Source: a virus. Taken from it: a stretch of 30,579 nucleotides of DNA. Each line of letters opens with the position of its first letter. The first letter of the stretch is position 1. The DNA is taken from the IMG/VR virus record IMGVR_UViG_3300011010_000060, positions 1 to 30,579 of that record; one strand, written 5' to 3'. Positions 1,498 through 3,751 of this stretch are shown in pieces. The notes beneath the pieces are model-generated. The model did not search any database. It saw nothing but the letters and a program-made list of their open reading frames with translations, and had not been told where the DNA came from. Made by a program: the position numbers and the translations under genes.

Positions 1498-2651
1498 TAA
1501 TTGAACTACCTGAAGCACATAAGAACCAAGAGATCATTATTGAATCCCCTGCAAGGTTTAGGGTGGTGATGTGTGGCAGGAGGTTTGGCAAGTCAGAACT
1601 CTCACAGGTAGAGATTATAAAGAATGCCATTGTGGGGCAAACTGTTGCCTATATTACCCCGACTTATAACCTTGCCAAGACTTTCTTTGACAAGTTAGCA
1701 AAAGCAGTGCCATTCGCCTCTAATCGGTCCGACCTTACTCTTGAGTTCCCAAATGGGGGTTCGGTTCAATTCTTTACGGGGGAACGCTTAGACAACCTGC
1801 GAGGCAGGAAGTTCCACCTGGTAGTGATTGATGAGGCAAGTTTCATACCTGATCTTGAAGGCGGTTGGTTAAACTCAATCAGACCTACCCTAACGGATTA
1901 CAAGGGAAGGGCATTGTTTCTCTCAACTCCAAAGGGTAAGAATTACTTTTACTCATTGTTTATGAAAGGGAACGGAGGGGAGGAAGATTGGCAAAGTTTC
2001 AAGTTCAGCACGTATGACAATCCGTACATAGATAAGTCAGAGGTTGATAGTGCAAGGATGCAACTGCCCGAGGTAGTCTTTGAGCAGGAGTATATGGCGA
2101 ACCCTGCTGAGAATGCTGCCAATCCTTTCGGGTCTGCTTACATTCGCCAGTGCATCTTCCCGATGTCTACCAATCAAGTCGCTTGTTATGGCATTGACCT
2201 TGCCAAGTCTGTTGACTGGACTGTGGTGATAGGTTTAGATAAGAACGGGTCTGTATGCCATTACGAACGATTCCAAAGGGATTGGAGGCAGACAAAGGAG
2301 TATATCATCAACTTACCCAAAGCACCCATCTTGATGGATAGCACGGGGGTAGGAGATCCAATCTTTGAAGATATGCAACGTGAAGGGTTAAATGTTCAAG
2401 GGTACAAGTTTAGCAGTACATCAAAGCAGATGCTTATGGAGGGTCTTGCTTCTGCCATTCACCAAAGGAAGATCACATACCCCCCAGGTCCCATTGTGGA
2501 TGAACTTGAAATCTTTGAGTACCAGTATACCTCATTCGGGGTAAAGTATTCAGCACCTCAAGGATTCCACGATGATTGCGTGGTTAGTCTGTCCCTTGCT
2601 TGGCAACACCTCCAAAAGAATGTGGGGAGTGGGAGATATTCCTTTGCGTAA
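1494..2651 (+). CDS. terL: Terminase large subunit (packaging ATPase/nuclease)
   Basis: A 385-residue two-domain packaging motor. The ATPase half shows a Walker A-type GRRFGKS at residues 28-34, Walker B VVIDEAS with D113/E114, and a coupling motif FLSTPKG near 142-148. The nuclease half has the RNase-H-like acidic residues: D235 in YGIDLAK, D282 in LMDST, and D360/D361 in FHDDCVVSLSLAW. All catalytic positions are present and the length is at the short end for the family, so it looks complete. It works at the portal vertex, pumping DNA into the prohead and cutting concatemers. It starts at an ATGA overlap with the preceding gene, implying translational coupling. The next gene is 422 noncoding bases away, and the portal is about 11 kb downstream, an uncommon separation. 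Confidence 0.96.
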   Translation: MIIELPEAHKNQEIIIESPARFRVVMCGRRFGKSELSQVEIIKNAIVGQTVAYITPTYNLAKTFFDKLAKAVPFASNRSDLTLEFPNGGSVQFFTGERLDNLRGRKFHLVVIDEASFIPDLEGGWLNSIRPTLTDYKGRALFLSTPKGKNYFYSLFMKGNGGEEDWQSFKFSTYDNPYIDKSEVDSARMQLPEVVFEQEYMANPAENAANPFGSAYIRQCIFPMSTNQVACYGIDLAKSVDWTVVIGLDKNGSVCHYERFQRDWRQTKEYIINLPKAPILMDSTGVGDPIFEDMQREGLNVQGYKFSSTSKQMLMEGLASAIHQRKITYPPGPIVDELEIFEYQYTSFGVKYSAPQGFHDDCVVSLSLAWQHLQKNVGSGRYSFA

Positions 2652-2673
2652 AAATAAATATTTGCTAAAAAAG

Positions 2674-2702
2674 TTAGTTTATTGAAATATTGTTTATATT
2701 TG
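2674..2702 (+). promoter_or_regulatory. Putative Bacteroidota-type promoter after terL
   Basis: TATATTTG at 2695-2702 matches the -7 consensus TAnnTTTG of Bacteroidota primary-sigma promoters. The -33 element is weak (TTAG at 2674-2677, 17-base spacer). Transcription would start near 2709, just ahead of the hairpin series at 2714-2805, in the only long gene-free stretch of the window. It would drive the tail/head operon through a structured leader, or make a short RNA ending at 2805. Confidence 0.5.
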
Positions 2703-2713
2703 CTAAGTCAATC

Positions 2714-2799
2714 CGAATTGATATTCGCAGTATTTATTCGGGTTTGATTTAAGCAACCCGCTTACGTTAAACCCATACAACTGCGAAATGTGTGGGTTT
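2714..2799 (+). ncRNA. Structured leader RNA with competing hairpins and loop pairing
   Basis: Three hairpins in series: CGAAT/ATTCG at 2714-2718 and 2723-2727; CGGGTT/AACCCG at 2739-2744 and 2755-2760; and an 11-pair stem (one G-U) at 2769-2779 with 2789-2799. The 9-base loop of the third contains ACTGCGAA (2780-2787), an exact complement of TTCGCAGT at 2724-2731, which would form a pseudoknot and break hairpin 1. Also, GGGTTT at 2740-2745 can pair with AAACCC at 2769-2774, destroying both hairpin 2 and the terminator stem. Mutually exclusive pairings ahead of a T-run are the architecture of attenuators and riboswitches. It matches no RNA class I recognise. The pairings are visible; regulation or an independent small RNA is inference. 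Confidence 0.5.
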
Positions 2800-2805
2800 T
2801 CTTTT
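2769..2805 (+). terminator. Intrinsic terminator, possibly conditional
   Basis: An 11-pair stem (AAACCCATACA with TGTGTGGGTTT, one G-U pair), 9-base loop, then a T-rich run TTTTCTTTT that starts inside the stem at 2797 and ends at 2805. It could stop read-through from terL or end a short transcript from 2709. Its left arm can alternatively pair with 2740-2745. Confidence 0.65.
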
Positions 2806-2922
2806 GCCCATACTTGAATAATGCAAGTAGACCACTACCTCTCAAAGTTCTGAAATCAAGGAGTTTAAATCTGTTAAATGAAAAGAAGGATGTAACTTTT
2901 TCCCTTTTCAGCCGACTAACCC

Positions 2923-2946
2923 GATTACCTATGTGACGGAGTAGAT
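2923..2946 (+). repeat. Left copy of nested direct repeat pair
   Basis: GATTACCT (2923-2930) followed by GGAGTAGAT (2938-2946). The same two words occur in reversed order on the other side of the stem-loop, at 3020-3039. Confidence 0.5.
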
Positions 2947-3019
2947 GGTCAGTGGTTGCTTACTCTTGGGGGAGGGGGGCAACTTCTGTCCTGACCAACT
3001 TCCCTCATAACCTTGTTCG

Positions 3020-3039
3020 GGAGTAGATTAAGATTACCT
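3020..3039 (+). repeat. Right copy of nested direct repeat pair
   Basis: GGAGTAGAT (3020-3028) then GATTACCT (3032-3039), both in the same orientation as at 2923-2946. A third GATTACCT lies at 13306-13313, 11 bases before the ATG at 13325. Confidence 0.5.
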
Positions 3040-3073
3040 TATACACTTAACCACATTTAAACTATTTAACATT

Positions 3074-3751
3074 ATGAATTGGTCCAATGTAACAGTATTC
3101 CAATACCAGCAGATTAATGAACTCTATGCTAATAGCAAGGAACTTACCGACCTTGATATATCTGTAAAGGTTGCCTCAATACTTACTAACCAAACGGAGA
3201 ATCAGATTGATTCATTACCCGTTAAGGAACTTGCACCATTGCTTGAGTCTATCTCATTCATCAACGATGAGATTAAACCCGAAGCGGTCAAGGTGCTAAA
3301 GATTAACGGCAAGAGGTATAAGTGCGTTTACGATGTGCGGAATATCCCTGCATCCAGGTATATTGAATCAAAGCACTTCAGTAGTGATGTGATGGGTAAC
3401 TTGCACAAGATTATGGCGTGTATGGTCATTCCCCAAAGGAGAGGGTGGTTTGGATGGGTTAATGCTAAGTACGATGCAGGTAAGAATAGTGATTACTCAC
3501 AAGATATGCTTGAAGCAGCTATCGTTTCCGTTCTTGGTTCGGTGGATTTTTTTTATCAAGTATACAAGATTTGGATAAAGAATTCAAGGGATTATATGGT
3601 CCAACAGATGATGGAGCAGGGAGTGGAGAGGATGAAGGCGGAAGAAGTGCATCAGGTTTTATGTTCCATTATGGATGGATATACCAAACCAAACTGGTTG
3701 CCGACTTTGAAAGAATCACACTTGACGAAGCATTTAACTTACCTGTCTTGA
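3074..3751 (+). CDS. Tail assembly chaperone, zero-frame product
   Basis: A 225-residue protein, first gene of the tail/head operon, starting at an ATG in an AT-rich leader. Residues 1-70 (start MNWSNVTVFQYQQINELY) and a following NGKRYKCVYDV segment resemble the chaperones that Bacteroidota phages encode upstream of their tape measure. Such proteins (like lambda gpG) coat the tape measure during tail assembly and are usually absent from the virion. The frame crosses T8 at 3547-3554, where a -1 shift would join it to a second open frame. The zero-frame tail (about 65 residues after the slip site) is helical and polar and could itself be functional. The function call is from pattern memory plus the frameshift architecture; a generic tail protein is the alternative. 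Confidence 0.7.
   Translation: MNWSNVTVFQYQQINELYANSKELTDLDISVKVASILTNQTENQIDSLPVKELAPLLESISFINDEIKPEAVKVLKINGKRYKCVYDVRNIPASRYIESKHFSSDVMGNLHKIMACMVIPQRRGWFGWVNAKYDAGKNSDYSQDMLEAAIVSVLGSVDFFYQVYKIWIKNSRDYMVQQMMEQGVERMKAEEVHQVLCSIMDGYTKPNWLPTLKESHLTKHLTYLS

What the first reader, a model, noticed from the sequence alone, without database searches (positions are those of the whole stretch)
2674..2805. Promoter and attenuator-like RNA with pseudoknot potential between terL and the tail operon
A TAnnTTTG promoter is followed by three hairpins and a terminator within 110 bases. The terminator loop (2780-2787) is an exact 8-base complement of 2724-2731, and 2740-2745 can pair with the terminator left arm at 2769-2774. 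These alternatives can switch the terminator on or off. It matches no riboswitch or phage antitermination RNA that I know. It may control entry into the late operon, or be an independent RNA of about 95 bases (a packaging RNA is a speculative option because terL is adjacent).
Basis: partly seen in the sequence, partly recalled or inferred. Interest (0 to 1): 0.72.

Follow-up and report, generated by a model that had tools for sequence, protein, structure and literature searches.

The report
Bistable phage RNA before large RNAs
Just after the packaging gene of an uncultured phage lies a previously undescribed, strongly conserved RNA of about 97 bases with its own promoter and stop signal, apparently built to flip between a 'stop' and a 'read-on' shape, and in every relative found it sits directly in front of one of at least five unrelated large structured RNAs.

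Summary
Window 2695-2805 is a promoter (TATATTTG, 2695-2702), three hairpins and an intrinsic terminator. The 8-base complement between loops 2724-2731 and 2780-2787 is exact; alone it is weak evidence (7% of shuffles have one). About 60 further IMG/VR contigs carry the RNA. In them the 7-bp core of that pairing changes on both sides at all 7 positions, is paired in 42 of 42 distinct sequences, and never uses G-U. The promoter stands exactly 4 bases upstream in 50 of 51 copies. Rfam, GenBank phages and plasmids have no match.

Terminator and antiterminator folds are nearly isoenergetic across homologues, and the balance is lost when antiterminator-specific bases are randomised. A bistable attenuator is therefore my best explanation, but no trigger or transcript is shown.

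Packaging RNA is unlikely: a relative with 96% identical TerL lacks it, and others carry it among replication genes. Every copy with readable downstream sequence precedes one of at least five unrelated large structured RNAs (window 2823-3028 is one), so the unit is a two-RNA cassette.

The parts
2674..2702 (+). Bacteroidetes-type promoter: weak -33 element TTA (2674-2676), 18-nt spacer, -7 element TATATTTG (2695-2702)
   Evidence: TAnnTTYG ends exactly 4 nt before the RNA's GTCAAT in 50 of 51 distinct loci, including phages with unrelated flanks; a TTG at the -33 position in 28
2707..2805 (+). the ~97-nt RNA (predicted 5' end at or just before 2707, 3' end in the T tract about 2799-2805)
   Evidence: cmsearch with model R1: 98.7 bits here, 61-113 bits in homologues, one copy per record; fold z = -6.1; no Rfam match
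2707..2748 (+). hairpin P1: 2713-2723 with 2731-2741, and a weaker lower stem 2707-2711 with 2744-2748
   Evidence: 5 pairs of the upper stem have changes on both sides; the lower stem is broken in L131 and in the GGGTCT variants
2724..2730 (+). 7-nt loop of P1, one half of loop-loop helix K
   Evidence: 7 of 7 pairs compensatory, 42 of 42 sequences fully Watson-Crick
2740..2748 (+). GGGUUUGAU, left strand of the antiterminator helix (also lies in P1 and could pair with the P2 loop AACCC 2755-2759)
   Evidence: invariant apart from U38C in 5 of the 44 aligned copies; 97.9% of cells paired with 2766-2774
2750..2764 (+). hairpin P2 (TAAGC / AACCC loop / GCTTA)
   Evidence: 3 of 3 pairs counted have changes on both sides, 96.8% of cells paired
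2766..2774 (+). GUUAAACCC (family consensus AUURRACCC), right strand of the antiterminator helix; 2770-2774 is also the terminator's left arm
2770..2805 (+). intrinsic terminator: stem P3 2770-2780 with 2788-2798, then the U tract
   Evidence: 99.3% of cells paired, 3 pairs with changes on both sides; T-rich tract in all 51 loci
2781..2787 (+). 7-nt terminator loop, other half of helix K
2823..3028 (+). large structured RNA, type A (~206 nt), directly downstream, before the start codon at 3074
   Evidence: 25-sequence alignment A2: 10 pairs with changes on both sides, covariation score reached by 0 of 500 shuffles and no slid register; of 31 contigs with it, 30 have the 97-nt RNA just upstream and the other begins at its contig end
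2939..2946 (+). internal copy of direct repeat GAGTAGAT in the type A RNA
   Evidence: changes together with the 3' copy across relatives (coordinates)
3021..3028 (+). 3'-terminal copy of direct repeat GAGTAGAT
   Evidence: the conserved RNA ends here

Best explanation
A new family of bistable transcription-attenuator RNA that forms the 5' half of a two-RNA phage cassette. RNA polymerase starts at the promoter at 2695-2702 and makes a ~97-nt leader. In the terminator state, hairpins P1, P2 and P3 form; P3 plus its U tract releases a small RNA, and the P1 and P3 loops can kiss over 7 bp. In the read-through state, helix K (2724-2730 x 2781-2787) and a 9-bp antiterminator helix (2740-2748 x 2766-2774) form instead, P1 and P3 are broken, and polymerase continues into the large structured RNA (2823-3028) and the next gene. 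Shown computationally: the promoter, P1, P2, P3, helix K, conservation of the exclusive helix, the small energy gap between the folds, and the constant linkage to a large RNA. Inferred: that the switch operates in the cell, what triggers it, and what the large RNA does.
For: Stems P1, P2 and P3 covary. Helix K is paired in 42 of 42 distinct sequences, 7 of 7 pairs compensatory, no G-U. The exclusive helix 34-42 x 72-80 is 97.9% paired, and its bases 72-75 (AUUR) have no partner in the terminator fold yet are conserved. Forcing helix K gives a fold with the antiterminator helix in all 42 homologues, 0-6.2 kcal/mol above the minimum. The two folds differ by 1.1 kcal/mol on average, with the antiterminator better in 15 of 42; randomising columns 71-75 raises the gap to 5.2 kcal/mol. 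The promoter is at a fixed offset in unrelated contexts. Large RNA types A, B/E and C lie directly behind the small RNA wherever upstream sequence is held.
Against: The antiterminator helix shows no double-sided compensation: six pairs vary on one side only, and the GGGUCU variants break one pair. Helix K fits exactly the two 7-nt loops, as a kissing interaction in a single stable fold would, so its covariation does not require a switch. The pairing energies ignore pseudoknots and co-transcriptional folding. No transcript, ligand, protein or host is known. In five of 42 sequences the antiterminator fold is 5 kcal/mol or more above the minimum.
Confidence: 0.5

Rival explanations
1. A stand-alone small RNA with one stable fold: P1 and the terminator hairpin are locked by a 7-bp kissing loop that protects the RNA or presents a protein-binding surface. 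It acts in trans, and the downstream large RNA is a partner or a neighbour in the same cassette.
For: Own promoter and terminator at fixed positions. K matches exactly the two 7-nt loops, whose closing pairs are mostly kept (A3 columns 17-25 paired in 40 of 42 sequences, 86-94 in 38 of 42). Strict Watson-Crick pairing suits a kissing complex. The terminator fold is the unconstrained minimum, with at least 8 terminator pairs, in 26 of 42.
Against: It does not explain why AUUR just upstream of the terminator is conserved and complementary to the invariant UUGAU/GGGUUU strand, nor the near-equal energies.
Confidence: 0.33
2. A lambda pR'-tR'-like late leader: a short transcript ends at the terminator until a phage antitermination protein modifies polymerase and opens the tail/structural operon.
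For: Promoter, short RNA and terminator stand directly before structural genes in the TerL-linked phages.
Against: The same cassette lies among replication/recombination genes in 50-60 kb phages. Near relatives with the same late genes lack it. The next gene varies (methylase, HNH, recombination gene, structural gene).
Confidence: 0.08
3. A packaging RNA related in role to phi29 pRNA, because terL is adjacent.
For: Adjacent to terL in 25 of 33 loci with TerL of at least 80% identity.
Against: Absent from the whole 33.2-kb record L004 (TerL 96% identical) and from other TerL relatives. Present away from terL in other phages. No Rfam match, phage pRNA included.
Confidence: 0.03
4. A mobile RNA element: the two RNAs travel as a unit, and the covarying direct repeat at the large RNA's 3' end reflects guided or site-specific insertion.
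For: Presence/absence polymorphism, several insertion contexts, swap with a protein gene at one site (L152 versus L157), covarying direct repeats.
Against: One copy per record. No IS110 transposase or reverse transcriptase in 25 carrier records. No target-site duplication seen. Exchange by ordinary phage recombination explains the polymorphism.
Confidence: 0.06

Closest known systems
Transcription attenuators / riboswitch expression platforms (terminator-antiterminator pairs)
   Same: A leader RNA with its own promoter, an intrinsic terminator, and a conserved upstream strand complementary to the terminator's left arm.
   Different: No aptamer or leader peptide recognised; the strictly covarying loop-loop helix is unusual; what follows is a large non-coding RNA, not a biosynthetic gene.
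HK022 put RNA (phage antitermination RNA; structure paper PMC9378689)
   Same: A phage leader RNA that could affect termination in cis.
   Different: From my knowledge, put is two hairpins with no terminator of its own and acts on downstream terminators; here the terminator is part of the RNA. Not tested experimentally.
ColE1 RNA I / RNA II kissing loops
   Same: Two 7-nt loops fully paired, with loop sequence free to change if the complement is kept.
   Different: Here both loops lie in one molecule, and the host is a phage, not a plasmid origin. Recalled from general knowledge.
GOLLD and ROOL large phage-associated RNAs (PMC12286853)
   Same: Large non-coding structured RNAs, some found in phages; comparable to the downstream RNAs.
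   Different: No Rfam match in the window or the carrier loci scanned; the RNAs here are 200-460 nt and are led by the small bistable RNA.
phi29 packaging RNA (Rfam Phage_pRNA)
   Same: Small phage RNA near packaging genes.
   Different: No Rfam match; dispensable in close relatives; found away from terL.

Membership tests
Any Rfam 15 family | covariance model score at or above the gathering threshold | tested here: not met
   0 matches in the window; best sub-threshold match to 2600-3120 is trpB, 23.7 bits against 59 needed
Transcription attenuator (terminator/antiterminator switch) | intrinsic terminator directly in the leader | tested here: met
   P3 99.3% paired, T-rich tract in all copies
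Transcription attenuator (terminator/antiterminator switch) | conserved mutually exclusive antiterminator helix | tested here: inconclusive
   9 bp, 97.9% paired, energy balance depends on it, but no double-sided compensation
Transcription attenuator (terminator/antiterminator switch) | regulated read-through in response to a signal | not testable with these tools
   needs transcription assays or RNA-seq
Kissing-loop RNA | covarying complementarity between two hairpin loops | tested here: met
   K: 7 of 7 pairs compensatory, both hairpin stems covary
phi29-type packaging RNA | required by, and constantly present with, its packaging motor | tested here: not met
   absent from the record with 96% identical TerL and from many TerL relatives
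lambda-type late leader (pR'-tR' with Q) | constantly located upstream of the late operon | tested here: not met
   several carriers have it among replication genes
HK022 put RNA | suppresses pausing and termination downstream in cis without protein | not testable with these tools
   needs transcription assays
IS110-type bridge RNA / RT-linked RNA | linked recombinase or reverse transcriptase gene | tested here: not met
   PF01548 and PF00078 absent from 25 carrier records

The most novel reading that the evidence does not exclude
A modular two-RNA phage system: one constant bistable small RNA acts as the gate or partner for at least five structurally unrelated large non-coding RNAs, carried as an exchangeable single-copy cassette. 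The large RNAs share a trait, best shown in type A, of an internal segment repeated at their own 3' end. This would be a kind of RNA-only accessory system not described before.
Probability: 0.3. Interest if true: 0.85.

Novelty: new variant of a known kind. Interest (0 to 1): 0.63.

Why it matters
Phage genomes are usually read for proteins. Here a compact cassette of two structured RNAs, undetected by Rfam and absent from GenBank phage and plasmid collections, recurs across aquatic Bacteroidota-type phages with selection visible on nearly every helix. If the switch works, it is a new phage attenuator class with a very clean loop-loop helix for study. If the large RNAs are the cargo, these phages carry an unknown RNA-based function that can now be tested directly.

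Tried and rejected
Rfam at gathering and at relaxed E-values on the window and 14-19 carrier loci: only tRNAs reached threshold. BLASTN of three cassette versions against GenBank phages, and of the window's against plasmids: no match. Exact pattern scan of 84,980 species genomes: none. TerL relatives in genomes: only Pollutibacter soli, about 60% identity, without the RNA by model search. Packaging RNA rejected. IS110 and RT linkage rejected. Complement of the covarying direct repeat searched near the type A RNA: one chance-like hit in about 20 readable loci. The P2-loop pairing GGGUU x AACCC was considered as a further pseudoknot: 93.7% paired in A1, with L162 suggesting a U-A to C-G change by eye, but not proven. 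My own regex test of it was unreliable because it also caught the terminator arm, so I do not rely on it. A loose pattern hit, L091, is a chance match in a GC-rich coding region. Literature searches found no description of this RNA; the library holds open-licence papers only.

Full report
WHAT WAS CHECKED. The window is a 30.6-kb virus record. The stretch 2652-3073 between terL (1494-2651; phrog_2 terminase large subunit) and the gene at 3074 has no listed ORF of 60 aa or more. All coordinates in the finding are right. The sequence folds with z = -6.1 against shuffles. The exact 8-base loop complement is not remarkable alone: 141 of 2000 dinucleotide shuffles have one.

HOMOLOGUES. TerL was used to fetch 80 IMG/VR loci. 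The element follows terL, sometimes after inserted ORFs, in 25 of 33 loci with TerL of 80% identity or more, and in none with TerL of 77% or less. Pattern scans and further fetches brought the total to about 60 contigs besides the window, including phages of 50-63 kb without a neighbouring terL. Each of 25 carrier records tested has exactly one copy. The near-complete-sized record of L004, TerL 96% identical, has none, so the RNA is an accessory. No copy was found by exact pattern in 84,980 species genomes, nor by BLASTN in GenBank phages or plasmids.

STRUCTURE. On 44 aligned copies (A1) and 49 model-aligned copies (A3), hairpins P1, P2 and P3 all show changes on both sides. The pairing between the P1 loop and the terminator loop (K) is paired in every cell, with all 7 pairs compensatory and no G-U at all. 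At least 19 different loop sequences occur. Shuffled and slid controls are far lower. A3 was fitted to P1, P2 and P3, so counts for those helices lean towards them; K was not part of the model. A divergent relative, L162, read by eye, keeps K as ATTGGGG x CCCCAAT.

PROMOTER AND TERMINATOR. A Bacteroidetes-type -7 element (TAnnTTYG) ends exactly 4 nt before GTCAAT in 50 of 51 distinct loci, also where the flanks are unrelated, and a T-rich tract follows the terminator stem in all. The Bacteroidetes promoter consensus (TTG, about 19 nt, TAnnTTTG) is established knowledge. The predicted transcript is about 97 nt.

SWITCH. It excludes P3 and the lower part of P1. It has no double-sided compensation, so covariation alone does not prove it. 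Two facts favour it. Its 5' bases AUUR have no partner in the terminator fold yet are conserved. Also, the antiterminator fold (K nested, exclusive helix, P2) is nearly as stable as the terminator fold across homologues: mean gap 1.1 kcal/mol, antiterminator better in 15 of 42, rising to a 5.2 kcal/mol gap when columns 71-75 are randomised. K is used in both readings: nested in the antiterminator fold, kissing in the terminator fold. I therefore take an attenuator as most likely (0.5) and a stably kissed small RNA as the main rival (0.33).

THE SECOND RNA. Directly after the terminator comes a large structured RNA. The window has type A (2823-3028), whose own structure is supported (10 pairs with changes on both sides, no shuffle reaches the covariation score). 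Of 31 contigs with type A, 30 have the small RNA just upstream, and the last begins at the contig end. Types B and E, C and D (L104, L152) are unrelated to A in sequence, and every copy found also follows the small RNA. At one site the RNA cassette of L152 is replaced in L157 by a protein gene with its own leader. So the natural unit is a cassette: small RNA plus one of at least five large RNAs.

A PUZZLE. In type A, an internal segment (window 2939-2946) is repeated at the RNA's 3' end (3021-3028), and both copies change together across relatives: GAGTAG, GTATAG, GAATAG, TAATAG, GACTGT, GAGAA (L088 and L121 read by eye). Similar repeats with about 70-85 nt spacing occur in some copies of B, C and E. 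No complement to the repeat was found nearby except one isolated hit. IS110 transposase and reverse transcriptase are absent from carriers. I have no explanation.

VERDICT. Observation confirmed. Interpretation partly supported: structured, switch-capable and promoter-driven, yes; specific to the late operon or to packaging, no. Nothing here is experimental: transcription, switching, trigger, host and function are all untested.

Noticed in passing
window 2939-2946 and 3021-3028; same positions in L003, L007, L088, L090, L099, L120, L121, L131: Covarying direct repeats inside the type A RNA and at its 3' end; both copies change together, with no complementary strand found nearby in nearly all loci.
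   Followed up: partly
L005, L010, L104, L126, L086, L152 (downstream of the small RNA): At least four further large structured RNA types (B, C, D, E), unrelated in sequence to the window's type A and unmatched in Rfam.
   Followed up: partly
L125:6384-6491 (-), L092 and L027 next to the cassette: tRNA-like genes beside the cassette; the L125 one matches the Rfam tRNA model over 108 bases, longer than a normal tRNA, and ARAGORN does not call it.
   Followed up: no
L157:1226-1330, also L154 and L158: A different promoter-leader with self-complementary GGCTCATT/AATGAGCC before a protein gene, in the same slot where L152 has the RNA cassette: another possible structured leader.
   Followed up: no
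L007, L028, L089, L110, L119: Variant small RNAs with GGGTCT and an extra P2 insertion (GACCTCT...AAAGAGTTCTCTTT), found in both TerL-linked and unlinked phages.
   Followed up: partly
window 2806-2812: GCCCATAC just after the terminator repeats the terminator's left arm and can pair with its right arm in the long-range minimum fold; not conserved in relatives.
   Followed up: partly
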